Shown one piece after another: positions 18,362-35,798 of a stretch of DNA of 64,000 nt. How positions within the stretch are numbered: position 1 is the stretch's first letter; every line of letters begins with the position of its first letter. Source of the stretch: Streptomyces violaceusniger Tu 4113 (GTDB taxonomy: Bacteria; Actinomycetota; Actinomycetes; Streptomycetales; Streptomycetaceae); assembly GCF_000147815.2 (NCBI RefSeq), contig NC_015957.1, positions 3,348,001 to 3,412,000 of the forward strand, in the 5' to 3' direction. The position numbers and the translations under genes are program-made. Below the pieces are notes generated by a model that was not told the origin of the DNA, searched no databases, and worked only from the letters and a program-made list of their open reading frames with translations.

Positions 18362-18368
18362 GTTTCTA

Positions 18369-18680
18369 CTAACTCTGCTCGGGCGTGGTCTCTTCCCCGT
18401 CCTCCAGCCGCTGCCCCCGGCTCTCCGCCACCCGCAGCGCGTCATGCAGCGCCTCGGCCAGCCGATGCCCCACGAAGCGCAGCTCGCGGGCGTTCGCACG
18501 GTGGTCCCGGAGCAGCGGCCGCGCATGCCCGAGAAGGTCGGCCCCGGTCCGTAGCTGTACGGTCTCCATCTCGTCGGCCAGCCGCGAGAGGTAGCTGGTG
18601 CCGGTGTCGTCGGTGACGAGGAAGCAGGGCTGCCCGTTCAGTCCGGGCCAGGGCAGCAGACGGGGGCGTGATGAAGGCAT
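18369..18680 (-). CDS. Conserved small protein of unknown function
   Basis: This 103-aa protein begins MPSSRPRLLPWPGLNGQPCF. Its central LADEMETVQLRTGADLLGHA and VGHRLAEALHDALRVAESRGQRL segments are amphipathic and helical. It ends seven bases before the monooxygenase start, so the two are probably cotranscribed. Codon use is normal and both termini look intact. Many actinomycete gene pairs with XRE/DUF397 neighbours carry such short proteins; I cannot assign a function. Confidence 0.65.
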   Translation of the reverse strand: MPSSRPRLLPWPGLNGQPCFLVTDDTGTSYLSRLADEMETVQLRTGADLLGHARPLLRDHRANARELRFVGHRLAEALHDALRVAESRGQRLEDGEETTPEQS

Positions 18681-18902
18681 GAGGGCTCCATGGCGTTCCG
18701 AGGTTCGGCTACCGCGAGTGATGAGGCGGTGGCGGAAACAGCTTCACGGCCGTAAGAGTTGCTGTGCAAGAGCGATTGAATTTCTCGCTTGAGATGGCAT
18801 ATGTGACCGAGTGGGCTGTTGTCAGAACAAAGCAGGTTTCCGGTGCCAGACTCGGAACTCGCACCACGGCATGGCAGGCTCAACCCACCGGGAGGCATAC
18901 TC

Positions 18903-20055: not shown

Positions 20056-20694
20056 GTGGCCGTGGATATCGACGATCCCAAGGACGTGGTCAGGCGCGGG
20101 TATGACGCGCTATCCCGCCACTACGAGCAGTCCTATGCCACCGAAACCAAGTACCAGCCCTTGCTCGGGGCGCTCCAGCAGCGCATTCCGCCCGCCGCCA
20201 CCGTGCTGGACCTGGGGTGCGGTTGCGGCATCCCGGTCGCCCGCGTGCTGGCGTCCGCAGGGCACCGTGTGACCGGTGTCGACATCAGCGGGGAGCAGAT
20301 CCGCCGGGCGCGGGAGCTGGTGCCGGAGGCCGAGTTCCGCCAGGCCGATGCCACGGCCGTGGAGTTCCCGGCCGCCTCCTTCGACGCCGTGGTCTCCCTC
20401 TACGCCCTGATCCACATCCCGCTGGCGGAACAACCTCCCCTCCTCGCCAGGATCGCCACCTGGCTCCGTCCCGGCGGCTGGTTCCTGGGCACCACCGGAC
20501 ACAGCGCCTGGACCGGCACCGACGACAACTGGCTCGGCGGTGGCGCCACGATGTGGTGGAGCCACGCCGACGCCGCGACCTACCGGGACTGGCTCACCCG
20601 GGCCGGACTGACCGTCGAGGGAGAGGAGTTCGTCCCCGAAGGCGACAGCGGCCACGCCCTGTTCTGGGCGCGGCGGCCGGTCGCGGGGGAGTGA
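20056..20694 (+). CDS. Class I SAM-dependent methyltransferase
   Basis: The product of 212 aa has VLDLGCGCGIPVARVLA (motif I, SAM binding) near residue 51, VTGVDISGEQI (motif II acidic loop) and FDAVVSLYALIHIP (motif IV). This is the Methyltransf_11/25 type that acts on small molecules. GTG at 20056 and GTG at 20052 both lie near the start; the former gives MAVDIDDPKDVV. The substrate is unknown. It follows the DUF397 gene by 75 bases. Confidence 0.85.
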   Translation: MAVDIDDPKDVVRRGYDALSRHYEQSYATETKYQPLLGALQQRIPPAATVLDLGCGCGIPVARVLASAGHRVTGVDISGEQIRRARELVPEAEFRQADATAVEFPAASFDAVVSLYALIHIPLAEQPPLLARIATWLRPGGWFLGTTGHSAWTGTDDNWLGGGATMWWSHADAATYRDWLTRAGLTVEGEEFVPEGDSGHALFWARRPVAGE

Positions 20695-21993: not shown

Positions 21994-22761
21994 TCAGCCG
22001 TTGAGCTCCAGTTTTAGGTTGTGCAGGGCGGCGATGCCGGCGACGGCGTGGTTGATCTCTTCCCGCTTGCGGCGGCATTGGCGGAGGACTTGGTGGTCCT
22101 TGAGGCGCGTGAGGGTGTGCTCGGCGACGGCGCGGCGCTTGCGGAACCGCGGGTAGGCCCGATCCTTGATGATCTTCCGGTCAGGCCCGCGCCGGGGCGA
22201 GCGGATCCGCTCGATCCCTTGATAGCCACCATCGCCGGACAGGCGGGAGTGATCGGGCAAGGTCTTGCCGACGGTCTCCCGGAAGACCACCACATCGTTG
22301 CGGTTGCCCGGCCAGGCGTCGCCGACCGCGACGAGGCGGCGGTCACGGGCCCGGCAGGGGATCTGTACATTCACACTGCGCCGGTAGTTCTTCGACTTCT
22401 GCGTCTTCTGCTGGTCGTGCACCGGAATGAGGGTGCTGTCCACCAGCCATAGCTCCCGCCGGTCGGTGGGCGGCGGGCCGAGCAGGGCGGCGAGGTGTGG
22501 CGCGAGGTCGGCGGTGACCCGGTGCACGGTGGAGTCCGTGGTGGCGAACAGCCCGGCCAGCTGCTCCATGGTGAGGTTCGTGCGGTAGCCCAGGACCACC
22601 AGCAGCACCCGGTTGCCGAAGGTGAGTGACCAGAGCCGGCCGCACCCGCTGGCCGGGCGGCGTCGCCACAAACGGGTGATCAGGGCATGCAGCTGCGGCC
22701 CGGACAGCTCCGTCCACGCCTTCAACTGAGCAGAACGGCAGGTGGCGAGACGAAGTTCCAT
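21994..22761 (-). CDS. IS5-like DDE transposase
   Basis: The product of 255 aa is a DDE_Tnp_4 type transposase. LVDSTLIPVHDQQ (first Asp), DGGYQG (second Asp) and VAEHTLTRLK (Glu) form the catalytic triad. The N-terminal LTMEQLAGLFATTDSTVHR is the helix-turn-helix. I chose ATG at 22761 (MELRLATC); the ATG at 22791 is also in frame. I could not find convincing terminal inverted repeats, so element borders are not given. It lies between the hydrolase promoter and a TnpB-like gene. Confidence 0.85.
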   Translation of the reverse strand: MELRLATCRSAQLKAWTELSGPQLHALITRLWRRRPASGCGRLWSLTFGNRVLLVVLGYRTNLTMEQLAGLFATTDSTVHRVTADLAPHLAALLGPPPTDRRELWLVDSTLIPVHDQQKTQKSKNYRRSVNVQIPCRARDRRLVAVGDAWPGNRNDVVVFRETVGKTLPDHSRLSGDGGYQGIERIRSPRRGPDRKIIKDRAYPRFRKRRAVAEHTLTRLKDHQVLRQCRRKREEINHAVAGIAALHNLKLELNG

Positions 22762-22803
22762 ACAACTGACCGTAACCCGAACAGACTTCATGACGTTATG
22801 CCT

Positions 22804-22845
22804 GACGTTGACGTTGACGTTGACGTTGACGTTGACGCTGACGCT
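22804..22845 (+). repeat. GACGTT hexamer tandem repeat
   Basis: Five GACGTT and two GACGCT units stand between the transposase and the TnpB-like gene. They are followed by GGAGA/GGAGG-rich sequence that acts as, or contains, the ribosome-binding site of the latter. Read from ATG 22798 they would encode an Asp-Val repeat. Confidence 0.85.
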
Positions 22846-22878
22846 GGTCCGGGAGAGGAGAGGAGAGGAGGGGAGAGT

Positions 22879-25001
22879 GTGGTGAGTCGGTCATCGCCTG
22901 CTCGTGCTCCTGGGGAGGGGCGGCGGTTTCGGGGGCCGAACCGGGGTGAGGTGTGGCGGCGGGCGAAGGATGCGCCGGTGTCGGTGATCCGGCTGCCGCT
23001 GGTGGTCGCCAATGCGGGTGTCCGCCGCCGGGTCGAGCAGTTGTTTTCGGGGATGTGGCACGTCAAACGCGCCCTGCAGCGTGATGCGCGGGATGTGGTG
23101 GACGCCTACTGGGCCGGTGAGGTGCGGCGTGAGAGGGATGTGAAAGCCTGGCGGGCCGAGTTGGGCCTGTCCCGCACCGGGCTGGAGCGGCGCGCGTATC
23201 GGCATCTGGAGCGGTCGGGGTGGCTGAGCGATCATGTGTCGAAGGCGTTGGTGATGCACCAGGCCGACGAGGTCTTCACCGGTGTGGCCCGGCACCTGCA
23301 CCCGGACGCGTCGGGGCGGCGGGCCGGGCGTCCCAGGACCGGGACTTGGTGGGAGTACACCCGCATCCCGGGCCGGGCCCGCTCGCACACCACCGACCGC
23401 AAGTGGGAGACCTTCCGCCTCCACGGCACCCTGGCCGGACACTTGGACACCTTCCGGCACCCCGCACTGCCACTATCGGTCACCACCCCCGCCCAGGCCG
23501 CAGGGCTCCCGCCGGGCATGCGGGTGCTGGCCCAGCCGCGCCGCATGCCCGCCCCCGCCCGGCCCACGGGAGGCATCCCCACCGGGACCACCGACACCCA
23601 CCGGCGCCCGCGCGGCAGGGCGGCGACCTGGTTCGACCACACCGGACCGCTGACTGTCGTCTTCGTCGGCGGGCCCACCGGACGCGGGGACATCGTCTTG
23701 CCCGTGCGACTGCCGCAGGGAGCCGGACGCTGGCCCTATCTGCTGCACTACCTCAACGATCCGGCCCGGTGGCACAAGATCGACCTGGTCCGCAGGCGGG
23801 ATCCAGCCGCCCCAGGCGGCTGGGCCTACGAGGCCCATCTGATGATCCTGGCCCCCGGCTACGCCTCCCCCACCACCCGTACCCGGCGCCGACAGGCCGC
23901 CACCGGGCAGCGCGTGGGCGGGGTGGACGGCAACGTCTCCAACCTCGCCGTCGTCTCCCTCCCCACCACGCTCAACCCCGATGACGGCGGCGTGTGCTCC
24001 GACCGGATCACCCTGACCGAGCAGGAGCAACACGCCCTGGCCACAGGGCGCACCAAGGCCCGGGGGCGCCAGCGCGCCCTTGACCGCTCGCGCCGCGCCA
24101 CCAACCCCCAGCAGTACCAGCGCTCCCGGCGTCAAAAGGCCCGCGACGAACACCGGCAGGCAGCAGGCCTGCCCCCCAAGGCCGTCACCGTCCCGACCGG
24201 ACCCCGGCGCACCACCGCGACCGGAAAACCCCAACAGGCCTACCGCCGCGACACGCTCAGCACCAGCTACCGCAATCTACGGGCCCGCCACAGTGCCGAG
24301 GCCGCGAGCGCGGCCGAGGCCTCCCATCACCGCGCGAAGAAGACCGCCGCTGCTCTGGTCGCCGCCCACGGCCCGAACCTGACCATCGAGGACTGCGACA
24401 TCCGCACCTGGTTCCGCCTGTGGGGCCGAGCCTGCTCCGCCACCACACCCGGACGGCTGATCACCGCACTCGCCGCCGAGTGCACGGCCACCGGCGGACG
24501 CCTCCTGCGCGCCTCCACCTTCACCACTGCCCTGTCCCAGCATTGCCTGTGCGGCCGACGCGTACCCAAGTCCCTGCGCCAACGTACCCATCACTGCGAC
24601 CCGGCCGAAGGCGGCTGCGGACTGAAGGCGACCGTGACCTGGTCTCCGCCGCCCTGGCCGCCTTCACCACCCTCACCGACCCCGACGACCCCACAACCGC
24701 CCGCCCGGACCACACCCACGCCCGCACCGCCCAGATCCTCTTCGCCCAAGGGCTGCAAGAAGCCCTGACCGAGTCAACCGCACCGAAGTCCGCGCCCTGG
24801 GGCCGGACCCGCGCGGCAGCCGAACCCCCCGGGAACACCCTTCCCCGGCAACGGACGGCCTCTGCTCGGCGAAACGCCGGACCCCGCACCGTGGCAACCC
24901 CGGATGAGACCCGACCCGCACCCCAGCGGCCCAAGGCCCACGCCGGCACGACACGACCGCACACCGGCCGCCCCCGTACACACATACGGGACAAGTCTTA
25001 G
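22879..25001 (+). pseudogene. Large TnpB-like RuvC nuclease gene with a frameshift before RuvC-III
   Basis: From GTG 22879 (GGAGGGG just upstream) the frame runs to about 24630. It contains VGGVDGNVSNLAVVSL (RuvC-I, Asp near residue 350), LTIEDCDIRTWFR (RuvC-II Glu near 502) and a zinc finger (CLCGRR...HHCDPAEGGCG). At AAGGCGACCGTGAC (24626-24639) the frame leaves the family consensus. The minus-one frame instead reads DRDLVSAALAAFTTL, the RuvC-III motif, and continues to a stop at 25001. One lost G restores a product of about 707 aa, much larger than canonical TnpB because of a roughly 340-aa N-terminal part. The in-frame ATG 22798 would add an Asp-Val repeat. Whether this is decay, a programmed shift or a base error cannot be told here. 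Confidence 0.7.
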
Positions 25002-25858
25002 TCGATCCTGGAGAAGCGCCGTGCCGCGGTGGCCAGGGCAACCAGCGCCAGTGCGCCGACCAACGCCATCTCCACCGCAACGGGTGGCTGCCAGCCCCAC
25101 CAGTGCGGCCCGCCGCCGGTGCCGGCGTCGGACAGCGTGCGGCGCATCGCGTCGACCGCATAGGTCAGGGGGTTCGCCAACACCGCGCCGTTCAGCCACC
25201 CGGGGAGCCCGCTGACGGGGAAGAGCGCTCCGGACAAGAAGAGGAGAGGCATCATCGAGATTCCGACCACGGCCTGGAAGGTTTCTATGCGTTTGATGCT
25301 CACGGCGGCCAGTGCCCCCAGTGCGGTGAGTGCGAGTGTGGTCACCAGCAATTCCATCAACACCGGTGCGAGCAGAATCGGGTCGTAGGTGATGCCGAGT
25401 ACCCCGGCGATGCCGAGCACCAGCGCGCCGTATGCGGTGGCGGCGGTCGCGCCGCCCAGGCAGATACCGGCGATCAGAGCGCCGCGGCGCACCGGGGCGA
25501 TAAGCATCTCGCGGAGGAAACCGGCCTGGCGGTCCCATACGATCGACACTCCTGTGTTCACCGCGGGTGCCTGGACGACCATGAGGAGCATGCCGGGCAG
25601 GAAATAGGAGCGAAAGTCGGCGTCGTTGCCCGCGGTGCGCATGGCGGAGTTCAGTCCGGTCCCCAGGACCATCAAGAACATCAGAGGGGTGAGCAGGCTC
25701 ATGAGGAGGCCGACGGGGCTTCGGGAGAGCCGGATGAGTTCGCGCTGCCACATGACCCGGACCGTGCGCAGGTTCCGGACGTGGGTGTTGCCGCTCCAGG
25801 AGGCTGTGGGCAGGAGTGCCGTCGGCGTGGTCTTGGAGGGTGCTTCGGTGGGGGCCAC
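24998..25858 (-). CDS. Lasso peptide cluster ABC-2 type export permease
   Basis: The product of 286 aa is an ABC-2/DrrB-like membrane protein. After a cytoplasmic N-terminus and VMWQRELIRLSRSP come six hydrophobic segments, with the family loop VWDRQAGFLREMLIAPVRR between helices 2 and 3 and PLTYAVDAMRR near the end. The GTG start lies three bases after the ATPase gene stop. It likely forms the exporter for the mature lasso peptide, and for self-protection, with that ATPase. Its stop codon overlaps the stop of the converging TnpB-like frame (24998-25001). Confidence 0.88.
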   Translation of the reverse strand: MAPTEAPSKTTPTALLPTASWSGNTHVRNLRTVRVMWQRELIRLSRSPVGLLMSLLTPLMFLMVLGTGLNSAMRTAGNDADFRSYFLPGMLLMVVQAPAVNTGVSIVWDRQAGFLREMLIAPVRRGALIAGICLGGATAATAYGALVLGIAGVLGITYDPILLAPVLMELLVTTLALTALGALAAVSIKRIETFQAVVGISMMPLLFLSGALFPVSGLPGWLNGAVLANPLTYAVDAMRRTLSDAGTGGGPHWWGWQPPVAVEMALVGALALVALATAARRFSRID

Positions 25859-25861
25859 GGT

Positions 25862-26830
25862 CTATCCCTTCGTTCCGCGGCCGCGGGCGTCGACTTCCCG
25901 GATGGTGCGGCCGGTGTAGTGCAGAAAGACGTCGTCAAGGGTGGGTGGCGTCACGGTCACCGAGCGGACCGGGACCGTGAGTTCGGCGCACAGCCGGGGC
26001 ACGAAGCCCGCCGCGTCCGACACTCGCAGGCCGATCCCCCGGGGCCCGGGAGTCGCCTCCACTCCGAAGCGCTCACGGATGGTCCGTGCGGCCGTGTCGT
26101 CATCGCCGGTGCGCAGCGCTACCAGGTCGGCCCCGACAACGGCCTTCAGGGTGGACGGTGTTCCCTCGGCCACCAGGTGCCCGTCGTCGATGATGGCGAT
26201 CCGGTCGCAGTGCTCGGCCTCCTCGAGGTGATGCGTCGTCAGGAACACGGTGATGCCCTGCTCCTGTCGCAACGCGTGGAGGTGTTCCCAGATCACGGCT
26301 CTGGTCTGCGGGTCGAGTCCCGTCGTGGGCTCGTCCAGGAACAGCACGTGCGGGGTGTGTATCAGTCCGCGGGCGATCTCCAGCCTTCGGCGCATACCGC
26401 CGGAGAAGGTGCGGACCGGATCGGAGTGGCGCTCGGCCAGGCCCATCAGATCCAGCATGGTGAGGGCTCGATCGCGCCCCTCGCGTCGCGGGAGGCCGTA
26501 GAGATCCGCGTGGAAACGCAAGTTCTGCCCGGCGGTCAGGTCCACGTCGAGGGTCGTCTCCTGGAAGACGAGCCCGATGCGGCGGCGCACCTCATCGGGC
26601 TCGTGACGGATGTCGTGGCCTGCTACTTCGGCCCGGCCCGTGGTGGGGCGCAGAAGCGTGCTCAGCATTCCGATGGAGGTGCTCTTGCCCGCGCCGTTGG
26701 GTCCGAGGAAGCCGAAGATCTCGCCGGCGGAGACCGTGAGGTCGAGGTCGCGCACGGCCGGAACGGCGCCGTAGCTCTTGCCGAGTCCCCGGGCCAGAAC
26801 GGCCGTACCGGCGCCGCCGTTGACGTTCAC
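25862..26830 (-). CDS. Lasso peptide cluster ABC exporter ATPase (DrrA-like)
   Basis: The product of 322 aa has the Walker A motif GPNGAGKSTS near residue 43, a Q-loop (GLVFQET), signature FSGGMRRRLEIARGL, Walker B VLFLDEPTTGLD and the H-loop LTTHHLEEAE. The C-terminal extension ending TPPTLDDVFLHYTGRTIRE is the DUF4162-like tail of antibiotic-exporting ATPases. The GTG at 26830 overlaps the stop of the leader-peptidase gene (GTGA). The context, directly after B2 and before the permease, makes lasso peptide export the probable job. Confidence 0.9.
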   Translation of the reverse strand: MNVNGGAGTAVLARGLGKSYGAVPAVRDLDLTVSAGEIFGFLGPNGAGKSTSIGMLSTLLRPTTGRAEVAGHDIRHEPDEVRRRIGLVFQETTLDVDLTAGQNLRFHADLYGLPRREGRDRALTMLDLMGLAERHSDPVRTFSGGMRRRLEIARGLIHTPHVLFLDEPTTGLDPQTRAVIWEHLHALRQEQGITVFLTTHHLEEAEHCDRIAIIDDGHLVAEGTPSTLKAVVGADLVALRTGDDDTAARTIRERFGVEATPGPRGIGLRVSDAAGFVPRLCAELTVPVRSVTVTPPTLDDVFLHYTGRTIREVDARGRGTKG

Positions 26831-27249
26831 GGCCGACTCCGTACCGTCATGAGGACATGGAAGTAACGGATTTCGTCGATGTTCTCGCCGATGGGCTTGC
26901 CGTCGACCGCCACCCAGGCGTGGGCTTGGAAGGGCTGGGTGCGTACGCCGGTGCACCAGTCCGGCCAGGTGCCGGTCATCCGGCACAGCAGTGCGGTGGC
27001 GATGGAACGTTGCAGGCACCGGGGCCCGGCACAGGGCACGCTGACCGCCACCACCGCGTTGCGGGCTCGGAGGGTCTGGGTCTCTGCCGCGGGCCGGGAT
27101 CCGCGCCGCGCGCATTCCAGTACCTTGCGCAGACGCTGGGGCGGCAGGTTGGTGAGCAACCGGGCGATCCCCACCGCGGTCAGCGCGGCCGGGCGCAGAT
27201 GCCACGGCGGAGTGGTGGGAGTCTCAAGGCTCAGGGCTCGCACGCTCAT
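26827..27249 (-). CDS. Lasso peptide leader peptidase (B2 protein)
   Basis: The product of 140 aa is the transglutaminase-like cysteine protease of actinobacterial lasso clusters, which cuts the precursor leader. CLQRSIATALL holds the catalytic Cys, and AHAWVAVDG the His with the following Asp. The flanking PLTAVG-type N-terminus (ALTAVGIARLLTNLPPQRL) also fits. The ATG at 27249 overlaps the B1 stop (ATGA). Split B1 and B2 proteins, as here, are usual in actinomycetes. Confidence 0.92.
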   Translation of the reverse strand: MSVRALSLETPTTPPWHLRPAALTAVGIARLLTNLPPQRLRKVLECARRGSRPAAETQTLRARNAVVAVSVPCAGPRCLQRSIATALLCRMTGTWPDWCTGVRTQPFQAHAWVAVDGKPIGENIDEIRYFHVLMTVRSRP

Positions 27250-27503
27250 GAGGCCACCATCTTCGCGGCTCGAAGGGCGTCGACCAGTTTCTCGACGTCG
27301 GCCGTCGCCGCTTCGGGCGCTCCGGAGAAGCGTTCGCGCAGGGCCGAGGCGGCGGACGCGACGGTGCCGCCCGCGAGTAGGCAGCGGAGCACCAGCGCGC
27401 CGGTGTCGTTGAGCTGCCAGTACCGGCCGGTGCGCTCGTCGAGCAACACCATGCCGGTGTCCGTTTCGCTGCTGGTCACATGGGGGGCGAGGGAGTAGGT
27501 CAC
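27246..27503 (-). CDS. Lasso peptide RiPP recognition element (B1, PqqD-like)
   Basis: The product of 85 aa is a stand-alone RRE that binds the precursor leader and presents it to B2. HVTSSETDTGMVLLDERTGRYWQLNDTGALVLRCLLAGGT is the PqqD-like winged fold (given here in outline: two strands, then helices). The GTG at 27503 was chosen because it overlaps the cyclase stop codon (GTGA); longer in-frame starts would lie inside the cyclase gene. Confidence 0.92.
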   Translation of the reverse strand: MTYSLAPHVTSSETDTGMVLLDERTGRYWQLNDTGALVLRCLLAGGTVASAASALRERFSGAPEAATADVEKLVDALRAAKMVAS

Positions 27504-29341
27504 GATGCACCTCGGGCGGGTTGGGGTGTGGATGTTCCGGCGGACCTCACATCGGGCGGCAGCGCGCGGAGCCACAGTTCGTTGGCGAGCGTCGACTCGA
27601 AGGGCATGAGCGGCCTGGTGTCGATGTGCAGGCTGTTCAGGACGGTGCGGATGCCGTTGACGTCCACCAGCCCCAGCCGTGCGAGCCGCGAGTCCTCGAA
27701 CAGTTCTGTGAGACGGCGCCGGTGGCGGCGCAACCCGATGTACAGCTCGGGACTGGCGTCGGCCTTGCTCTGCCGGGCGAGGAGGTCATCGGGTGCGATG
27801 CCGCGCATCGCCGCCGCGAGGACCGGTTTGACCTGGCCGGGCGCCATACGGTCGGCCAGCCTGATGGACATCGCCGCCTCGAGCACCCGGTCGTCGATGA
27901 AGGGGGCCTGGAAGGAGACGCCGAATTCGGCGCCGATCCGCGAGCTCGTACGTACGGCGGTGCCGTTGACCTGGGTCAATCGCAGCATCTCGTGGTGTAC
28001 GGGCAGCGGCGCCAGCGGTTCGGGGTTCTGCGATGCGGCCTGGCGGATCCGGCGGCGTACCGCGTCGATGGCATCCGGGGTGGCCCAGGGCGGCATCTTC
28101 GGTGCGATCTCCCAGTCGACGGCGGTGCCCCAGGCGCGTTCGGCGGTGATGCCCTCGGCCGCCGAGGCCATCCACCGCGGATAGGACTGGTTGTACAGGA
28201 GGACACGTAGCGTGCTCGCCCACGACCAGCGGCGCATCGACTTCATCGCCCGAGCCGGACGAATCGCGCTGAACGGGCTACTGTGAGCGAGTGCGTGCAG
28301 TGACAGCGCACTGGGGATGAACAGCTCGTCCGAGCCGATGCCCTGCAGATGTATGGCGGAGCCGTGGTCGGCGACAAGGCGCGCGAGGTGTTCCATCATC
28401 GGTCGGCGGGTGAAGGACAGTGGCGTATCGCTGGGCTGGGCCGTGTCGCCGTTCGCCACTTCCGCGTAGATCCCGGGCGTGGCCTTCATGGGGACCACCA
28501 GGTGCCGGGCGTGGGGCAGTCGGTCCGCGCACCGGGCGGCCCAGACCCTGTCCTCGTTCGCGGGGTCCGAGGACTGGGCGTGGACGGTCACCAGCCGCGT
28601 GTCATGCCGGGCCGCGAGAAAGCACAGGCTCGTCGAGTCCTTGCCGCCGGAGAGGTCGGCGCTGATGGTGTCGCCCCGTGACGTGCGTGCCGCGACGGCC
28701 GTCTCCAGCGCCTCGCGCAGCGCGGCGACACCTGGTTCCAGCGGGAGTTCGGGCTCGGGCGGCGTCCAGTACCGCGTGGTGCGCTCGGTCCCGTCAGCGC
28801 GGATGTCGACGTAGTGGCCCGGGAGCAGGGTCCGCACTCCCCGCCATACGCTCGTCATGTTCAGTGGCCAGGGCGGTCCATAGGGCGTGAGCAGCTGCAA
28901 CGCGATCAGCTCTTCGTCGACGCCGGCTCCGGTCAAGGACGCTATGGTCTGCGGCCGGTCGGCTGCCACGGTCACGCCGTCGACGCGACCGTGGAAGAGC
29001 TGGCACGCGGTCGAGACGGTGCCTTGGGCTCGCACTCGCCCGCCGATCGACGCGACCAGGTGGAAGCAGCCCGGCAGCGAGCGGGTCAGCGTGTCCAGAT
29101 CGTGGACGGAGCGAACGGTGCGGAGTCGTTCGGCCAATGCGGCGGAGGTCAGCGTGGTGGTTCCCAGCACCGCCGCGGAGTTCCGCCCCACGGAAGCGGT
29201 CACGACCTCGTGGTCGGCCCAACGGCCCACGATCAACGGGCGCCCGGAGCTATGCGGAATCATTTGTGAGTGTGCCGAGTCCGGCAGGAGCGCCGTGATT
29301 CCCGCACTCGCCGGGTGATCCGGAAGGATCAGGAATTCCAT
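27500..29341 (-). CDS. Lasso cyclase (asparagine synthetase-like, C protein)
   Basis: The product of 613 aa has the usual length for actinobacterial lasso cyclases. It would adenylate the Asp side chain of the precursor core and close the macrolactam on the new N-terminus. The N-terminal glutaminase-like domain lacks the catalytic Cys2 of true asparagine synthetases (it begins MEFLILPDHP). The synthetase domain has the PP-loop SADLSGGKDSTSL near residue 230 and GIGSDELF near 330. The ATG at 29341 has GGGAGA upstream. It follows precursor gene 2 by 77 bases and is translationally coupled to B1. Confidence 0.92.
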   Translation of the reverse strand: MEFLILPDHPASAGITALLPDSAHSQMIPHSSGRPLIVGRWADHEVVTASVGRNSAAVLGTTTLTSAALAERLRTVRSVHDLDTLTRSLPGCFHLVASIGGRVRAQGTVSTACQLFHGRVDGVTVAADRPQTIASLTGAGVDEELIALQLLTPYGPPWPLNMTSVWRGVRTLLPGHYVDIRADGTERTTRYWTPPEPELPLEPGVAALREALETAVAARTSRGDTISADLSGGKDSTSLCFLAARHDTRLVTVHAQSSDPANEDRVWAARCADRLPHARHLVVPMKATPGIYAEVANGDTAQPSDTPLSFTRRPMMEHLARLVADHGSAIHLQGIGSDELFIPSALSLHALAHSSPFSAIRPARAMKSMRRWSWASTLRVLLYNQSYPRWMASAAEGITAERAWGTAVDWEIAPKMPPWATPDAIDAVRRRIRQAASQNPEPLAPLPVHHEMLRLTQVNGTAVRTSSRIGAEFGVSFQAPFIDDRVLEAAMSIRLADRMAPGQVKPVLAAAMRGIAPDDLLARQSKADASPELYIGLRRHRRRLTELFEDSRLARLGLVDVNGIRTVLNSLHIDTRPLMPFESTLANELWLRALPPDVRSAGTSTPQPARGAS

Positions 29342-29418
29342 GTCGATCTCCCTGTCGGGCGGACCCAAGACCACTCCTGGGTCCGCCATTTCGCCTGGTC
29401 GTGGTCAAGGCCAGGGGT

Positions 29419-29550
29419 TTAGATGTCGAACCACCCCGTGATGAACATGTTGTCGAGCCACCGGCCGCAGCAGCCCAAACGGGTGAGGACGGCGAAGTCG
29501 CCGACCTCGACCAGAATCGGCGGCTCGTATTCCCATTGCTCTGTGACCAT
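29419..29550 (-). CDS. Lasso peptide precursor 2
   Basis: This 43-aa gene is absent from routine calls because of its size. The leader carries the conserved YEPP-L...G-F...T pattern (YEPPILVEVGDFAVLT) read by B1. Taking the conserved Thr as leader position -2, the core is LGCCGRWLDNMFITGWFDI (19 residues). The only acidic residue at ring-closing distance is Asp9, giving a Leu1-Asp9 nine-residue macrolactam; starting at Gly2 would give an eight-residue ring. Cys3 and Cys4 are adjacent within the ring and there is no other Cys. A GAGGAGC ribosome site precedes the ATG. Confidence 0.9.
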   Translation of the reverse strand: MVTEQWEYEPPILVEVGDFAVLTRLGCCGRWLDNMFITGWFDI

Positions 29551-29665
29551 GAAGAATCAGCTCCTCGGGTTGATGGCCGCAGCCGGTCCGGAAGGGCCCG
29601 GGTGACGGACGCGGAATGCGCCCGTCACCCGGGCCGTGAGGCCGGCCCTCACGCGGACCAGGGGT

Positions 29666-29797
29666 TTAGAAGTCGAACCAGGCGGAGACCCAGATGTTGT
29701 CGATCCACCTGCCGCAGCAGGTGACCCGGGTCAGCTCGGCGAAGTCGCCGACCTCGGCCAGCACGGGCGGCTCGTACTCCAGCTTTTCCGTGTTCAC
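29666..29797 (-). CDS. Lasso peptide precursor 1
   Basis: This 43-aa gene is the first of the operon. GAAGGAGAG precedes the GTG at 29797. The leader pattern is again YEPPVLAEVGDFAELT. The predicted core is VTCCGRWIDNIWVSAWFDF, 19 residues, with Val1 to Asp9 as predicted ring. Against precursor 2, the CCGRW, DN and WFD positions are invariant while ring position 8 and tail positions 11-15 vary conservatively. This is what selection on a shared fold looks like. Both genes have identical length and stop with TAA. The 115-base gap between them holds a GC-rich hairpin (GGGCCCGGGTGACGG...CCGTCACCCGGGCC) near 29597-29634 that may trim expression. Confidence 0.9.
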   Translation of the reverse strand: MNTEKLEYEPPVLAEVGDFAELTRVTCCGRWIDNIWVSAWFDF

Positions 29798-29885
29798 GGA
29801 TGCTCTCCTTCGCGTTGATTCACCATGCGGTGGTCGATCTCCTTGACCGCCGCGGAAACCAATGTGCTCGGAAGGCCGTGGACAG

Positions 29886-29902
29886 ACCTTGGACGAACCT
29901 TG
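29886..29902. promoter_or_regulatory. SARP-type direct repeat in the divergent promoter
   Basis: ACCTTG occurs at 29886-29891 and 29897-29902, 11 bases start to start. Direct hexamer/heptamer repeats on one helical turn are the known binding pattern of SARP regulators. The site lies between precursor 1 and the SARP gene, about 90 bases from the precursor start, so it could control both directions. A third, less perfect copy (ACCTTC on the other strand) is near 29926. Confidence 0.55.
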
Positions 29903-29963
29903 AATAGTCCGGTCACAGCGGTTATGAAGGTTGCAGGGGATGCGACAACGGGGGGAAGAACCG

Positions 29964-32789
29964 ATGGTGTCATTCGGCTTATTGGGCAGTGTCGAAGTAC
30001 GTGTCGACGGAACAGAGATGAACCTGGGGCATGCCCGGCAGCAGTGCGTACTCGTCGCGCTGCTGGTCGAGGCGAATCACGTGGTGGCGGTTGACCAGCT
30101 CGTCGACCGGGTGTGGGGAGAGCGCCCTCCGCGACGCGTTCAGGGGACGTTGTACAGCTACATTTCCCGTCTCCGCCAGGCGCTGGCTCCCGCCGCCGAG
30201 CAGGTGAGCATCGGTCGGCGATCCGGCGGTTACGTCCTCTCGGTCGAGGAGACGGCAGTGGATCTGCACCGCTTCCGTCGACTGGTCGGGCAGGCCCGCG
30301 CCGCCGACGAGGACGAGCGTGCCTCGGCACTGTTCGCCCAAGCGCTGGGACTGTGGCGGGGGAGAGCCTTCACCGCCCTGGACACCCCGTGGTTCACCAC
30401 TCTTCGCGAGGCCCTGGAGCGGGAGCGAACCGCCGCGGAGCTGGACCACACCGACATCCGGCTCCGCATGGGCCGCCACACCGGGTTGCTGGCCGAGCTG
30501 CCCACCCGCTCGGAGGCGCATCCGCTGGACGAGCGTCTGGCCGGGCAATTCATGGTCGCCCTGTATCGCAGCGGCCGCCCTGCCCAGGCCCTGCACCACT
30601 ACCAGGAAATCCGATGTCGGCTGGCAGAGGAACTGGGCACCGACCCGAGCCCGGCGCTGCAAGATCTACATCAGCGGATTCTCACCGCTGACCCGGCGCT
30701 GACCGCCCCAGCGACTCTCTCCTCAGGCGGTGCGAGCCGACGCGCCGTGCCCGTACCGCGGCAACTACCCGCACCTCCACCGGTGTTCGTCGGACGGAAC
30801 CCCGAGCTCGCCGACCTGGACCGCCTGCTGGACTCCCAAGCCGCTCCCGGTGGCACGGTGATGGTGTCCGCGATCGGTGGCGTCGGCGGCGTCGGCAAGA
30901 GCTGGCTCGTCCTTCACTGGGCCCACAACCGTCTGGAACACTTCCCCGACGGGCAGCTCTACATCAATCTGCGTGGCTTCGACCCCTCCGGCGAACCCCT
31001 CGCACCGGCGGTGGCGGTCCGCGGTTTCCTCGACGCCCTCGGCGTCGATCCCGCGGAGATCCCCGCGGAGCTGGATGGGCAGACCGGGCTGTACCGCAGC
31101 CTGACGTCGGACAAGCGCCTGCTCATCGTGCTCGACAACGCCTGCGACACCGCTCAGCTCCTGCCCCTGCTTCCTGGCAGCCCCACCTGCACCGTGCTCA
31201 TCACCAGCCGCCGCCAGTTGACCGGCCTGACTGTCAGCCATGGAGCCCGGCCCCTCTACCTCGACGTACTCCCGGACACCGAGGCACGCCACTTACTCAT
31301 CCGCCATCTCGGCCATCGCAGGACGGCCGCCGAACCCGAGGCCGTGGCCACGCTCTTGACGTACTGCGCGGGACTGCCCCTGGCCATCAGCATCCTGGCC
31401 GCCCGCGCGGCGGCCAGCCCGGAGCTGCCGCTGTCGGCCCTGGCCGAGGAAGTCCAGGAAGCCGCCACCCGACTCGATGCCCTGGACACCGGCGACATGG
31501 CCGCGGACCTGCGTGCCGTGTTCTCCTCCTCCTACCACGCACTCCAACCCGATACCGCGCAGGCGTTCCGGCTGATCGGCCTCGCGCCGGGCCCCGACAT
31601 CGGCGTGCCCGCCACCGCGAGCCTCACTGGACTGCCCGTGGCACGGGTGCGCGTCCTCCTGCGCAAACTGCGGTCCGCCCACCTGATCCAGGAACACACC
31701 CCCGGCCGCCACCGCATGCATGACCTCATCCGCCTCTACGCCACCGAACAGGGCCACGGTCAACCGGTCCCCGTCAGCGACGCCGCACTGCACCGGCTCG
31801 TTGACTTCTACCTCCATACCGCCCACACCGCGGCAGGGCTGCTGGACGCACACCGGGACCAGATCCCCCTGGCCGCCGCCCAGCCGGGGGTCGTGCCGGA
31901 GGAGATGGCGGACCACGGTGCGGCTCTGGACTGGTTCACCGCTGAGCACCGGGTGCTGTACGCGACCGTTGATCTGGCGGCCGGCCTGGGTCTCGACGCG
32001 CACGCCTGGCAGTTGGCCAGGGCCCTCGAGACATTCTTCGACTACCGGGGGCACTGGCACGACTGGGCGGCCAGCCAACGTACCGCGCTCGAGGCGGCGC
32101 GGCGGCTGGGTGAGCGGTCCTGGCAGGCCGGCGCACATCGCAGCCTCGGCATGGCCTACACCCAGATGGGCCGCCTCGACGAGGGCCACACCCACTTCCA
32201 CCAGGCCCTGGATCTCTACGACCGACTGGGCGACCGGGTCAGCCAGGCGCACACGTACCGGGGCCTGGGCTGGGTGTGCGACCGGCAAGGCCGGCCCCGG
32301 GAGGCACTCGACCACAACGAACGGGCGCTGAGGCTGTACCGGCGGGCCGGCCACCGGGGCGGACAGGCCATGGCGCTGAACAACGCCGGGTGGCTGCACG
32401 CCATGCTCGGTCAGTACGAGCGGACGCTCGATTACTGCGCACAGGCGGTGGCCCTCAACAGGGAGATCGACGACCGGCACGCGGAGGCGGGGGCGTGGGA
32501 CAGCCTCGGCTACGCACATCACCACCTCGCTCGGTACGCGGATGCCACCGGCTGCTACGAGCGGGCCCTCGACCTCGTCCGAGGGGTCGGCGACCGGTTC
32601 AACGAGACGGAGATACTGAATCATCTGGGCGACACCCGTCTCGCCGCGGGCGATCATGAAGCGGCTCGGCTGGTCTGGCGACAGGCTCTTGAGATCGCCG
32701 AGGAGATCGGCCACCCGGCCGCCGACGAACTCCGCGACAGACTCATGGATCCTGCACGGGACCTCTCCGAGGACCAGTCGCAACGTTGA
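29964..32789 (+). CDS. SARP-family regulator with NB-ARC and TPR domains (AfsR-like)
   Basis: The product of 941 aa has a winged-helix DNA-binding domain (1-95; LLVEANHVVAVDQLVDRVWG) and a bacterial transcriptional activation domain (to about 240; ALYRSGRPAQALHHYQEIR). An NB-ARC ATPase follows, with Walker A GGVGGVGKSW near 304-313, Walker B LLIVLDNA and the GLPLAI motif. At the C-terminus are TPR repeats (GRLDEGHTHFHQALDLYDRLGD and three further repeats). The ATG at 29964 has GGGGGAAG upstream. It is divergent from the lasso operon and is probably its pathway activator. Large SARPs of this kind sense nucleotide or partner signals; the signal here is unknown. Confidence 0.88.
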   Translation: MVSFGLLGSVEVRVDGTEMNLGHARQQCVLVALLVEANHVVAVDQLVDRVWGERPPRRVQGTLYSYISRLRQALAPAAEQVSIGRRSGGYVLSVEETAVDLHRFRRLVGQARAADEDERASALFAQALGLWRGRAFTALDTPWFTTLREALERERTAAELDHTDIRLRMGRHTGLLAELPTRSEAHPLDERLAGQFMVALYRSGRPAQALHHYQEIRCRLAEELGTDPSPALQDLHQRILTADPALTAPATLSSGGASRRAVPVPRQLPAPPPVFVGRNPELADLDRLLDSQAAPGGTVMVSAIGGVGGVGKSWLVLHWAHNRLEHFPDGQLYINLRGFDPSGEPLAPAVAVRGFLDALGVDPAEIPAELDGQTGLYRSLTSDKRLLIVLDNACDTAQLLPLLPGSPTCTVLITSRRQLTGLTVSHGARPLYLDVLPDTEARHLLIRHLGHRRTAAEPEAVATLLTYCAGLPLAISILAARAAASPELPLSALAEEVQEAATRLDALDTGDMAADLRAVFSSSYHALQPDTAQAFRLIGLAPGPDIGVPATASLTGLPVARVRVLLRKLRSAHLIQEHTPGRHRMHDLIRLYATEQGHGQPVPVSDAALHRLVDFYLHTAHTAAGLLDAHRDQIPLAAAQPGVVPEEMADHGAALDWFTAEHRVLYATVDLAAGLGLDAHAWQLARALETFFDYRGHWHDWAASQRTALEAARRLGERSWQAGAHRSLGMAYTQMGRLDEGHTHFHQALDLYDRLGDRVSQAHTYRGLGWVCDRQGRPREALDHNERALRLYRRAGHRGGQAMALNNAGWLHAMLGQYERTLDYCAQAVALNREIDDRHAEAGAWDSLGYAHHHLARYADATGCYERALDLVRGVGDRFNETEILNHLGDTRLAAGDHEAARLVWRQALEIAEEIGHPAADELRDRLMDPARDLSEDQSQR

Positions 32790-32896: not shown

Positions 32897-34771
32897 CTAG
32901 GCGGGGGCGGTCATGAAGTCCTGTGGCCGCAGGGCTCGTTTGACGATGCGGGTGTCGCCGATCCAGCCGTAGAAGCCCTGGCCGAACTTCTCCTCGAACT
33001 GGGTGCCACCGATCACGAAGGGCTTGCCGAGGGTGGCGATCCCCGTCGACGGCTGGCCGGGGTTGCGGGCGATCTTCGAGCCGTCGACGTACACCACGGT
33101 GTGATGGCCGTCGTTGACGACGGCGACGTGGGTCCACCGGCCCACCGGCAGGGCGTGGCTCCAGGAGGTCGGATCGGCGTCCTGCACCTGCGGGTAGACC
33201 ACGAACTGCAGGAAGCGCTCGGGGGTCACATTGAGGCTGCACGTCGGCTCGTCGGGCGACCAGCCGGTGGTCTTTCCGGCGTCGCCGTTGCGCCCCTCCC
33301 AGCTGAGGATGCCCATCCAGGCGTGGTCATCCTCGAAGGGGTCCGGGAGCTTGATAAACGTCTCGATGGTGTAACCAGCGGTGAACTTCTCGGAGTTCAA
33401 CGGCGCCGTGGCGGAGGTGGTCAGGACCGCGCCGCGGTCGGGGGCCTTGCCGCCGTCGAAGCGCAGGCTGGCATGGGCCGGCTGGTCACCGTGGTGCTCG
33501 CCGGACCACGTCAGGATCTCGGGCTCGCTCTCGTGCAGGCGCGTCACCCGGAGGTCGTTGCCGTGGCCGGACAGGTCGCGGAGCACCGTATCCGTGCCGA
33601 CCGGTCCGTCCGCGCCCGCGCGAGCGGCGGTTCCCGAGGCGTCGAAGCGCCAGTACGCGAGGGTGCCGCGCGGCATGACGGCGGAGGCGGGGCGCGGCTT
33701 GCGCGGTACGACCGGGGCGAAGGAGGAGAAGCGGCGTTCGAAGTCGATGCTCAGGCTGAACCGGTCGACGGGGCCGGTCAGTTCGATGGTCTCCGCCTCC
33801 AGAGGTGTTCTCTTCTCCGGGTCGCGGCTGAGGAACCAGGGCGAGAACGTCTCCACGTCGATCACATCGCGGGCCAGGTCGAAGGCGTAGAGGCGGATCA
33901 TTCCGGCGCCGCCGTAGTACCGGTCCTGGTAGTTGGTGATGTGGATGTGGACGTCGTGGCCCGCGTCGTTGGTCAGGACGGTGCGCCCGGGGGGCCAGTA
34001 GTGTCCGCCCAGGGCGAGGAAGATCTGGTCGTTGCCGCGGACGAGCCCGTCCCACAGCCGCCGGCCGTTGTCCGAGAGCTGTGCGCTGCCCCCGTCATCG
34101 GCCCAGGCCAGGTCGTGGGTGGTGAGGACGGCGGGCAGGGTGGGGTGGGCGTCGAGTACCTTCTGCGCCCATCGCAGCCCGGAGTCGGAGATCCGCCAGT
34201 CGAGCGCGAGGACCAGCCACTCGCGCCCGCCCGCGGGCAGGACGTGGTAGCTGTTGTAGCCGTCGGGCGAGGCGCCGCCGAAGGTGGGCATGGCGGAGAA
34301 CCGCCGCGGACCGAAGGCGTCGAGATAGGCGCTGTCGCCGCGCTGGTCGTCGGTGCTGGAGTCGATGTCGTGGTTGCCGGCCAGGACGCTGTAGGGGACC
34401 TTGCCGTGGAGGGTCCCGAACACCGTGGCGGCCAGCGTGATTTCCTCCCGCGAGCCGTGTTCCGTGACATCACCCAGGTGCGCCATGAAGGCGATGTTGG
34501 CGTCCTCGCGCTGGGACACCAGGTACCGGAAGGTCGCCCGGAGCGGCTCCGGGTCGGAGCTGTCGGCGTCGAAGAGGTACTGCGTATCCGGCAGCACCGC
34601 GAGGCTGAACCGCGGCGACTCGGAGTCGTACCGGTGGCCGTCGGCCTTCGCGGTGGCCGCGTAACCGGGTGTCGTACCCGATGCGATGGCCGCTGTGCCC
34701 GCGGCCGGGATCACGGCGGTGGCCCGCAACAGCGTCCGTCTGCCCAACTGGTTGCGCCCCGCTGCGTCCAT
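32897..34771 (-). CDS. Secreted metallophosphoesterase with LamG-like domain
   Basis: The product of 624 aa has a Tat signal (GRRTLLRATAVIPAAG). The calcineurin-like fold carries VLPDTQYLF (metal-binding Asp), HLGDVTEHG, VLAGNHDID (GNH signature) and THDLAW/GGHYWPP (metal His). The C-terminal third (TLAYWRFDASGTA ... GYTIETFIKLPDP ... WTHVAVVNDGHHTVVYVDG) is a concanavalin/LamG domain, common in secreted surface-binding enzymes. The ATG at 34771 has GGGAG upstream. It probably cleaves a phosphoester outside the cell; the substrate is unknown. Confidence 0.85.
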   Translation of the reverse strand: MDAAGRNQLGRRTLLRATAVIPAAGTAAIASGTTPGYAATAKADGHRYDSESPRFSLAVLPDTQYLFDADSSDPEPLRATFRYLVSQREDANIAFMAHLGDVTEHGSREEITLAATVFGTLHGKVPYSVLAGNHDIDSSTDDQRGDSAYLDAFGPRRFSAMPTFGGASPDGYNSYHVLPAGGREWLVLALDWRISDSGLRWAQKVLDAHPTLPAVLTTHDLAWADDGGSAQLSDNGRRLWDGLVRGNDQIFLALGGHYWPPGRTVLTNDAGHDVHIHITNYQDRYYGGAGMIRLYAFDLARDVIDVETFSPWFLSRDPEKRTPLEAETIELTGPVDRFSLSIDFERRFSSFAPVVPRKPRPASAVMPRGTLAYWRFDASGTAARAGADGPVGTDTVLRDLSGHGNDLRVTRLHESEPEILTWSGEHHGDQPAHASLRFDGGKAPDRGAVLTTSATAPLNSEKFTAGYTIETFIKLPDPFEDDHAWMGILSWEGRNGDAGKTTGWSPDEPTCSLNVTPERFLQFVVYPQVQDADPTSWSHALPVGRWTHVAVVNDGHHTVVYVDGSKIARNPGQPSTGIATLGKPFVIGGTQFEEKFGQGFYGWIGDTRIVKRALRPQDFMTAPA

Positions 34772-34850
34772 TGACACTCCCGCGCATCGTGTGAAGAACC
34801 GGTGACCCCGGACCGCACTGTGGTCAAGGTCCGTGACCACGCAGGGGCGG

Positions 34851-35798
34851 TCAGGTGAACGGCGCCTGATCCGTTGCGGGCGGAACAGCCGTACGGCGGT
34901 GCTGACGTGGCCTGGCGAGCTGACGCACGGCAATGCCGAGGAAGTCCGCCACGAGCGGTCCACGGTCCTCGGCCCTGCTCGCGACCACGACGCGGCACGG
35001 TGCGATTCCTGCGACGGGAATGGTCGTGAGGTCGTGTCGAAGGGGGTGGTGCCCGCTGCCGGACGGCGCGAGGGCGAGGGCCCGGCCACCGGCGATGAGT
35101 TCGAGTTTGTCCACCGCGGACACGACGAGCGGGCCATCGGGTGCCGGGCGTCCGTCCGGGCGTGGGTCCAGACGCCAGAACGCGTCATACGCCGCGTCGG
35201 GGTACCGGACCAGGGCCTCGTCCGCGAAGTCGTCCAGGGTGACCGATGTGCGGCCGGCGAGACGGTGGAAGGCGGGCACCACCAGCACCCGGGGCTCCTC
35301 GTAGAGGACCGCTACGCGCAACTGGCCGGTCGGGAAAGGCTCTCGGGCGAGGACCACGTCGACCCGGTGGTCCAGGAGGGCCGCTTGTACCTGGCCGAAG
35401 TCCAGATGCAGGGTGTGCACCTCGGCGTCGGGACGCCGGTCGCGCAGTGCGCGGGCCGCGGTGGTCACGATGAGGCTGCCCGTGTACCCGATGGTGAATT
35501 CCTCGGGGCCGACGGCGGCGCGGGTCGTCGCCACGGCGTGCCGGGCGGAGTCCAGGAGTGCCTGCGCCTGAGGCAGGAAGATCCGGCCCGCCTCGGTGAG
35601 ATGGCTGCCCTGTTTGGTGCGATGGAGCAGGCGGACGCCCATGCGTTCCTCCAGACGCTGGATCTGCCGGCTCAGCGACGGCTGGGCGAGGTGCAGGGCG
35701 TCGGCCGCGCGGTGGAAGTTGCGGTGCTCGGCGACGACCGTGAAGTACCGCACCAGGCGCAGGTCGAGGTCGGCCGAGGAGGGGGGATCGTCGGGCAC
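34851..35798 (-). CDS. LysR-family transcriptional regulator
   Basis: The product of 315 aa has an N-terminal winged helix (FTVVAEHRNFHRAADALHLAQPSLSRQIQRLE) and a C-terminal effector domain starting at EEFTIGYTGS. GTG at 35798 places the helix-turn-helix at the usual distance from the N-terminus. The in-frame GTG at 35834 would add 12 residues lying in the dyad ATACGGGATCGCTAT, more likely part of the operator. It is divergent from the SDR gene, the common LysR-target arrangement, so it probably controls that gene. Confidence 0.87.
   Translation of the reverse strand: MPDDPPSSADLDLRLVRYFTVVAEHRNFHRAADALHLAQPSLSRQIQRLEERMGVRLLHRTKQGSHLTEAGRIFLPQAQALLDSARHAVATTRAAVGPEEFTIGYTGSLIVTTAARALRDRRPDAEVHTLHLDFGQVQAALLDHRVDVVLAREPFPTGQLRVAVLYEEPRVLVVPAFHRLAGRTSVTLDDFADEALVRYPDAAYDAFWRLDPRPDGRPAPDGPLVVSAVDKLELIAGGRALALAPSGSGHHPLRHDLTTIPVAGIAPCRVVVASRAEDRGPLVADFLGIAVRQLARPRQHRRTAVPPATDQAPFT

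What the first reader, a model, noticed from the sequence alone, without database searches (positions are those of the whole stretch)
24998..32789. Complete lasso peptide cluster with two hidden precursors and ring-internal vicinal cysteines
Seen: two 43-aa ORFs (29666-29797, 29419-29550), both with a YEPP-L...G-F...T leader, followed by a cyclase, RRE, leader peptidase and ABC exporter in overlapping order. Known: Thr at leader -2 is the usual anchor, which sets the cores as VTCCGRWIDNIWVSAWFDF and LGCCGRWLDNMFITGWFDI. Inference: Val1/Leu1 to Asp9 macrolactams with Cys3-Cys4 adjacent inside the ring and no other Cys. None of the disulfide classes I recall has neighbouring Cys within the ring; the thiols may form a vicinal disulfide or stay free for metal or redox use. 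Val or Leu as core residue 1 is also uncommon.
Basis: partly seen in the sequence, partly recalled or inferred. Interest (0 to 1): 0.9.

Follow-up and report, generated by a model that had tools for sequence, protein, structure and literature searches.

The report
Lasso peptides with paired ring cysteines
A Streptomyces gene cluster looks set to make two small knotted (lasso) peptides that carry two neighbouring cysteines inside the ring, a layout missing from the described lasso classes but shared by relatives in several soil bacteria; the peptides themselves have not been seen yet.

Summary
On the minus strand, two tandem 43-residue lasso precursors are followed by cyclase, RRE (B1), leader peptidase (B2) and a two-gene ABC exporter; a divergent SARP/AfsR-like regulator lies upstream. 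Both leaders, B1 and B2 pass curated lasso models; the cyclase passes only the general Asn-synthase model. The predicted cores, VTCCGRWIDNIWVSAWFDF and LGCCGRWLDNMFITGWFDI, belong to a family whose frame (Thr at -2, Gly5, Asp9) fits a nine-residue ring. Of 46 distinct cores that I assigned to it, 15 have Cys at both positions 3 and 4, none has only one, 31 have neither. Cys-Cys occurs in Streptomyces, Micromonospora and two further actinomycete genera; the cyclases beside Cys-Cys precursors are not one clade (p-AU 2e-5). No adjacent Cys is among 62 tabulated lasso peptides, nor among 84 other lasso-leader matches from 394 actinomycete genomes. Reviews describe disulfides tail-ring, loop-ring or tail-tail, not within the ring. 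The genes are ordinary lasso machinery; the Cys-Cys ring is a recurrent variant that I did not find described. Whether it becomes a vicinal disulfide, binds metal or stays reduced cannot be decided from sequence.

The parts
29666..29797 (-). precursor A1, 43 aa, predicted core VTCCGRWIDNIWVSAWFDF
   Evidence: NF033521 37.4 bits; relatives
29419..29550 (-). precursor A2, 43 aa, predicted core LGCCGRWLDNMFITGWFDI
   Evidence: NF033521 37.1 bits; relatives
27500..29341 (-). C: macrolactam cyclase, Asn-synthase-like, 613 aa, SGGKDS ATP loop
   Evidence: PF00733 140.8 bits; NF033561 243.1 bits, under its cut-off of 300; both scored on the longer ORF 27500-29389; motif
27246..27503 (-). B1: PqqD-like RRE, 85 aa from a GTG overlapping the cyclase stop
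   Evidence: NF033530 111.5 bits, cut-off 70 (scored on the longer ORF 27246-27575); sequence
26827..27249 (-). B2: transglutaminase-like leader peptidase, 140 aa
   Evidence: NF033537 119 bits, cut-off 33; PF13471 99.9 bits
25862..26830 (-). D1: ABC transporter ATPase, DrrA type
   Evidence: TIGR01188 326 bits, cut-off 312 (scored on the longer ORF 25862-27205)
24998..25858 (-). D2: ABC-2 permease, DrrB-like
   Evidence: PF01061 90.7 bits; TIGR01247 158 bits, under its cut-off of 223
29964..32789 (+). divergent SARP/AfsR-like regulator (BTAD, NB-ARC, TPR); ATG 29964 preferred over TTG 29931
   Evidence: PF03704, PF00931, TPR; NF053617 561 bits, under its cut-off of 1430
29876..29904 (-). three heptamers TTCAAGG, TCCAAGG, TCCACGG at 11-bp spacing, candidate SARP operator, 79-107 bp before the A1 start
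29551..29668 (-). A1-A2 spacer with an 18-pair hairpin, candidate processing or attenuation site
   Evidence: z -5.3; kept in two relatives with one mismatch in the stem
29342..29421 (-). A2-C spacer with a 13-pair hairpin just before the cyclase start
   Evidence: z -4.2; not compared with relatives

Best explanation
A complete two-precursor lasso peptide operon. Shown by sequence: two precursors with an L3 lasso leader, RRE, peptidase, cyclase, exporter, overlapping starts, SARP-type regulator. Inferred from how lasso pathways work: B1 binds the YEPP motif of either leader, B2 cuts after Thr-Arg, and C closes an amide between the amine of Val1 or Leu1 and the side chain of Asp9 around the tail, with Trp/Phe of the ..WFD[F/I] end as plugs; D1D2 exports the product. 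Cys3 and Cys4 thus sit next to each other in a nine-residue ring. Inferred with less weight: after export the pair closes, without an enzyme of the operon, to a vicinal (Cys3-Cys4) disulfide, probability about 0.5; the rest is shared by free or metal-bound thiols, intermolecular disulfides and no role. The confidence given is for the lasso cluster with a nine-residue Cys-Cys ring, not for the disulfide.
For: Leader, B1 and B2 models over their cut-offs. The order A-C-B1-B2 with ABC pair and regulator is kept at 92-98% protein identity in two Streptomyces genomes and, with cyclase at 44-58%, in nine other fetched loci that hold an unbroken cyclase match (L005/L143, L006, L038, L039, L040, L043, L138-L140), plus L141 at 46%. 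Ring frame: the family was found by homology to leader plus core, and Gly5/Asp9 define the set; Gly-first cores such as GMHYGRWLD start exactly at residue 1 of the frame. Cys pair: 15 of 46 distinct cores have both, 0 have one, 31 none. Cys-Cys stands against another pair on the same scaffold: MTCCGKWADSIWGYFFD versus LTNRGKWADSIWGYYWD. CC cyclases are not one clade: p-AU 2.2e-5. All 15 CC cores have Arg/Lys6, Trp7 and [FW]D at or one before the C terminus, against 8 of 31 non-CC cores with that Asp. No thiol-redox gene is in the operon; non-enzymatic disulfide formation has been considered for other lasso peptides in PMC9266682 (passages).
Against: The cyclase is under the cut-off of both lasso-cyclase models, and my fold model of it was too poor to use (mean pLDDT 48). 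No product, mass or expression data. A2 relatives keep the scaffold without Cys (FVNDGQW, GMHYGRW, DQNIGRW), so Cys-Cys is not needed for maturation. Many of the 15 are close kin, so 15 of 46 overstates independent cases. Redox genes do lie near some CC clusters of other genomes (DsbA-like about 8 kb from the precursor in L139, P450 in L138), so an enzyme outside the operon is not excluded. One non-CC family locus, L142, shows no cyclase, B1 or B2 match within its 18 kb.
Confidence: 0.83

Rival explanations
1. The two thiols stay reduced and act together: a two-thiol site for a soft metal or metalloid, perhaps with the conserved C-terminal Asp, or a redox-sensitive warhead.
For: Cys are all-or-none (15 both, 0 single of 46), as a bidentate site needs; Arg/Lys6 and tail Asp go with CC. 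A vicinal disulfide is an eight-membered ring with a strained amide, harder to fit in a small macrolactam (general chemistry, recalled).
Against: No metal transporter or metal regulator among the ten flanking window proteins scanned. An exported thiol pair in air would tend to oxidise.
Confidence: 0.25
2. Cysteines link molecules: A1-A1 or A1-A2 dimers through intermolecular disulfides.
For: Two precursors with Cys-Cys in one operon in three genomes.
Confidence: 0.12
3. Cleavage one residue later gives an eight-residue ring (Thr1 or Gly1 to Asp8) with Cys at 2 and 3.
For: Asp/Glu at residue 7-9 is the recorded range (PMC9266682); A2 cores have Gly at frame position 2.
Against: Thr would then be at -3, whereas Thr(-2) is the rule, with Ile/Val(-2) as rare exceptions (PMC10368454, passages). 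Gly-first relatives begin at frame position 1; in class I cores with this leader type and the same G5/D9 frame, frame position 1 is the known Cys1.
Confidence: 0.08
4. Cys-Cys is a neutral variant of a variable pair of ring positions with no chemistry of its own.
For: Positions 3-4 vary widely in the family, e.g. NR, SR, DK, YR, HS, CC.
Against: No single Cys at 3 or 4 in 46 cores; present in four Streptomyces genomes, Micromonospora and two other genera; not one clade on the cyclase tree.
Confidence: 0.15

Closest known systems
Class I lasso peptides (siamycins, aborycin, sviceucin type)
   Same: Same leader type ending LT-x, nine-residue ring with Gly5 and Asp9, split B1/B2
   Different: Siamycin-type Cys1, Cys7, Cys13, Cys19 form two disulfides that tie tail and loop to the ring; here Cys3 and Cys4 only, both in the ring, residue 1 hydrophobic
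Class III lasso peptides (BI-32169, 9401-LP1)
   Same: Two Cys, one possible disulfide; locus L043, whose core resembles 9401-LP1, has the same gene order and a cyclase at 44%
   Different: Class III has one ring and one tail Cys
Felipeptins A1/A2 (class IV)
   Same: Two lasso peptides studied together, called synergistic in the title of their paper (table and reference list only)
   Different: One tail-tail disulfide each; Glu in the ring; the paper itself is not held
Unnamed [x]-T-x-x-G-x-[WY]-x-D lasso precursors, e.g. Streptomyces sp. NBC_00887 plasmid, Thermomonospora echinospora
   Same: Same leader, ring frame, cyclase at about 52%, B1/B2
   Different: No Cys (ATYRGFWVD.., ITDKGGYVD..); none of the 62 tabulated peptides has this core; no paper search was made for these sequences

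Membership tests
Lasso peptide (RiPP) | leader with YxxPxL..G.F..T motif, Thr at -2 | tested here: met
   NF033521 37.4 and 37.1 bits, cut-off 19
Lasso peptide (RiPP) | B1 RRE of PqqD type | tested here: met
   NF033530 111.5 bits, cut-off 70
Lasso peptide (RiPP) | B2 transglutaminase-like leader peptidase | tested here: met
   NF033537 119 bits, cut-off 33
Lasso peptide (RiPP) | Asn-synthase-like ATP-dependent cyclase C | tested here: met
   PF00733 140.8 bits, cut-off 21; SGGKDS loop
Lasso peptide (RiPP) | curated lasso-cyclase models (NF033561, NF033535) at cut-off | tested here: not met
   243.1 of 300 and 57.4 of 525 bits; I take this for a limit of the models, since B1/B2 beside it pass theirs
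Lasso peptide (RiPP) | Asp/Glu at core residue 7-9 for the ring | tested here: met
   Asp9 in both cores
Lasso peptide (RiPP) | isopeptide bond and threaded tail | not testable with these tools
   needs MS/MS, NMR
Disulfide class I | four Cys, two disulfides to the ring, Cys1 | tested here: not met
   two Cys at 3 and 4
Disulfide class III | one ring-tail disulfide | tested here: not met
   no tail Cys
Disulfide class IV | one tail-tail disulfide | tested here: not met
   no tail Cys
Class II | no disulfide | not testable with these tools
   depends on the state of Cys3/Cys4
AfsR equivalog regulator | NF053617 over cut-off | tested here: not met
   561 of 1430 bits: AfsR-like, not AfsR

The most novel reading that the evidence does not exclude
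A new disulfide class of lasso peptides: a vicinal disulfide closed inside the macrolactam ring, reached more than once in evolution by exchanging ring residues 3-4 as a unit, which would act as a redox-controlled conformational switch of the ring that holds the thread.
Probability: 0.35. Interest if true: 0.7.

Novelty: new variant of a known kind. Interest (0 to 1): 0.47.

Why it matters
Lasso classes are defined by where disulfides lie. A ring-internal Cys pair would be a pattern outside classes I-IV (and outside the proposed class V of lariocidin B, which rests on a second isopeptide bond), with a reversible handle inside the ring itself. The family offers natural controls: near-identical cores with Cys-Cys or with Asn-Arg, and operons in which Cys-Cys and non-Cys precursors probably share one cyclase. 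That makes the role of the pair directly testable.

Tried and rejected
Rejected: chance ORFs (kept in other genomes); non-lasso RiPP (B1/B2 over lasso cut-offs); one uninterrupted clade for the Cys pair on the cyclase tree, with the caveat that precursor exchange between clusters or repeated loss would look the same.

A redox enzyme that belongs to the Cys-Cys trait. Ten flanking window proteins gave no thiol-redox family, though one is an NAD-dependent epimerase. Eighteen proteins scanned near L138, L139 and L038 gave a P450 (L138), a DsbA-like protein, a 2OG-Fe dioxygenase and a GCS2 ligase (L139), and a flavoprotein of the Pyr_redox type and a luciferase-like monooxygenase (L038). Searched against 13 loci, window included, the DsbA, GCS2, 2OG and P450 proteins were found only in their own locus; the flavoprotein was also in the window (17195-18526), L037 and L042, that is near all four Streptomyces Cys-Cys clusters and in none of the other loci. 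I first missed it. It has no CxxC and is in 55 of 61 Streptomyces genomes, so I read it as a chromosomal neighbour, not a cluster enzyme. A role is not excluded.

Led nowhere: cyclase fold model (mean pLDDT 48; no fold search made); Micromonospora copies were not reached in whole genomes (searched 12 and 22 genomes, 0 matches; that these include Micromonospora is not known, and they show nothing); sigma-70 and terminator scans (1 and 0 sites); plasmid search with A1 (one non-Cys relative).

Papers: 'lasso peptide' with 'vicinal disulfide', with 'CCGRW', and 'vicinal disulfide' with 'RiPP' gave 0 papers. Core fragments alone gave 78 papers; the 10 listed are on other subjects by title (mostly Giardia typing), none was opened, the other 68 were not seen. 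The library lacks most subscription journals and no supplements were read, so genome-mining tables may hold these cores.

Weak points of my counts: I picked the 46-core set by eye from the 66 cores (20 dropped: siamycin-type, Gly-, Pro-rich and others; none of the 20 has a Cys at 3 or 4); cores read later were not added. Three of the 86 census reads run off the fetched stretch at the C-terminal end. The repeat pattern was written after seeing the repeats, so its chance value is no test; one search scored the spacing alone, against single-base shuffles.

Full report
What is there. The minus strand between 29797 and 24998 carries a compact operon: precursor A1 (29797-29666), precursor A2 (29550-29419), cyclase C (ATG 29341 to 27500), RRE B1 (GTG 27503 to 27246), peptidase B2 (27249-26827), ATPase D1 (26830-25862) and permease D2 (25858-24998). 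C/B1, B1/B2 and B2/D1 overlap by four bases, as in translationally coupled operons. Both leaders, B1 and B2 are over the cut-offs of NCBI's lasso models; the cyclase is over the general Asn_synthase cut-off but under both lasso-cyclase cut-offs. A divergent gene, 29964-32789, has BTAD, NB-ARC and TPR domains and resembles AfsR without reaching that model's cut-off.

Host. The window lies 3.35 Mb into the 10.7-Mb largest contig of an 11.1-Mb genome. I take it for a Streptomyces: genome G149 is listed as 'same genus', and its contig has the length, 23,753 bases, of record NZ_JAHLEM010000218 of Streptomyces niphimycinicus, with the same precursors. This is an inference.

Relatives of the precursors. 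One-sequence searches listed four proteins for A1 and one for A2, one of the four (P0001) being 98% identical to A1 itself; the alignment search listed 81. Among 392 Streptomyces genomes the A1 search matched 34; I read all 34, and 4 have Cys-Cys, the window's own included (own, G095, G149, G359). Among 297 genomes of another order, 26 matched the wider profile; I read all 26, and 2 have Cys-Cys (G805, G925). A search with the Cys-Cys profile in 297 genomes of their family rang in six, among them these two and no further Cys-Cys (cores). NCBI names put others in Micromonospora. G805 and G925 are unnamed and of two genera; their family f17 also holds G613 and G884, whose contig lengths (248,922 and 294,210) are those of Thermomonospora echinospora and of Microbispora sp. 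ZYX-F-249, so they are of the Streptosporangiaceae side; an inference.

Ring frame and Cys pair. Of 66 distinct cores with Gly5 and Asp9 after Thr(-2) I took 46 as one family (picked by eye, 20 dropped, none of them with Cys at 3 or 4). In these, Cys is at both 3 and 4 in 15, at only one in 0, at neither in 31. Where Cys-Cys is absent, residue 4 is Arg or Lys in 17 of 31 and residue 3 most often Asn, Ser or Asp (20 of 31). In the 15, residue 6 is Arg or Lys, residue 7 Trp, and the tail ends in [FW]D or [FW]Dx; among the 31 others 8 have that Asp. One metagenomic core has its Cys pair at the tail end instead (P0019, VTNAGRFLDNPWVQGWWDCCG).

How rare. The lasso_leader_L3 model matched 86 times in 60 of 394 genomes of the class; I read all 86. 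Adjacent Cys were in 2 of 86, both from the window's own genome. Not all 86 are surely lasso precursors. In a 2025 review's table (PMC12427821, section 16 read whole) I count 62 rows, none with adjacent Cys. Reviews PMC9266682 and PMC13352647 (passages) define classes by disulfides between tail or loop and ring, between tail and ring, and within the tail; the first mentions engineered stlassin with ring-loop disulfides outside these classes. PMC12427821 reports a proposed class V for lariocidin B, which rests on a second isopeptide bond.

Evolution. On a tree of 14 cyclases the six Cys-Cys clusters fall in two starred groups, four Streptomyces and two of family f17, and the nearest neighbours of the second group are non-Cys clusters. 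Forcing one clade costs 99 log units, p-AU 2.2e-5 (13 rows, the distant L002 left out). This rejects one uninterrupted clade. It does not tell two gains from one gain with losses or from exchange of precursors. The second group shows the exchange plainly: MTCCGKWADSIWGYFFD beside LTNRGKWADSIWGYYWD. In G359 the operon matches the window's at 70% DNA identity over 4.2 kb, while three flanking stretches of about 1 kb match at 82-91%, so the operon may have been replaced in place.

Two precursors. A1 and A2 are tandem in the window, G095 and G149, all six with Cys-Cys. So one set of enzymes probably accepts both, and Cys-Cys is not a need of the cyclase.

Control of expression. Upstream of A1 are three heptamers at 11-bp spacing, TTCAAGG-TCCAAGG-TCCACGG (29904-29876), identical in G149 and with one change in G095. 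In 1000 single-base shuffles of each region, 2 reached that spacing score for the window, 15 for G095, 0 for G149; three f17 loci (L138, L139 and the non-Cys L140) have other repeats of the same spacing (9, 0 and 3 of 1000). That SARPs bind such repeats is recalled; a SARP gene upstream of a lasso precursor that raised expression from the precursor's promoter about fivefold is described in PMC5974421 (passages). Strong hairpins lie between A1 and A2 (z -5.3) and A2 and C (z -4.2); I read them as stabilisers or partial stops that raise precursor over enzyme, an inference.

State of the thiols. The genome cannot settle it. All-or-none Cys speaks for the pair working as a pair. The operon has no redox gene. 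Class I clusters carry DoxX- and thioredoxin-like genes, and peptide was still made without them (PMC9266682). Redox genes do lie within several kb of some Cys-Cys clusters, but differ from genome to genome, save a flavoprotein near all four Streptomyces clusters, which lacks CxxC and is present in 55 of 61 Streptomyces genomes. I give about 0.5 to a vicinal disulfide and 0.25 to a dithiol or metal site; these odds are judgement.

Verdict. Confirmed observation, ordinary machinery, unusual product. I rate it a new variant of a known kind, interest 0.47.

Noticed in passing
21994-24768: An IS5-like DDE transposase (-) and a weak TnpB-like ORF (+, 16 bits against a cut-off of 100) lie right after the permease. 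In L042 the methyltransferase and HTH/DUF5753 genes (window 20056-20694, 18819-19766) stand next in line without them (by gene starts), so a mobile element probably went in here.
   Followed up: partly
L038 6072-6458; window 25047-25197: In G359 a piece matching the window's permease at 83% DNA identity over 157 bases lies in reverse beside the more divergent operon, as if an older operon copy had been replaced.
   Followed up: no
17195-18526: Flavoprotein of the Pyr_redox/FMO type near all four Streptomyces Cys-Cys clusters, no CxxC, common in Streptomyces.
   Followed up: partly
L139 12979-17966: DsbA-like protein, 2OG-Fe dioxygenase and glutamate-cysteine ligase-like gene in a row upstream of a Cys-Cys lasso cluster.
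   Followed up: no
15758-16966: An ORF that looks like an RNA-guided TnpB-type transposase by eye (CxxC pairs near the C terminus); not scanned.
   Followed up: no
32897-35188: Long ORF with a Laminin_G_3 domain next to the regulator; matched over most of its length in L037 but only in pieces in L004/L042.
   Followed up: no
L002 (G000:C1:234962-236671): A second Asn-synthase-like gene in the same genome (28% identity to the cyclase) with a lasso-leader-like ORF upstream.
   Followed up: no
P0019: Metagenomic precursor of the same family whose core ends ...GWWDCCG: the Cys pair is at the tail end and the ring has none.
   Followed up: no
L018 and L135: Three tandem lasso precursors each: L018 with varied cores, L135 with class IV-like two-Cys tails.
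   Followed up: no
L041 and L142: L041 (core SVRRGHWIDFFGGWWL): cyclase matches in three pieces, perhaps a broken gene. L142 (core ITSSGGWIDSPGWGWWL): no cyclase, B1 or B2 match in 18 kb.
   Followed up: no
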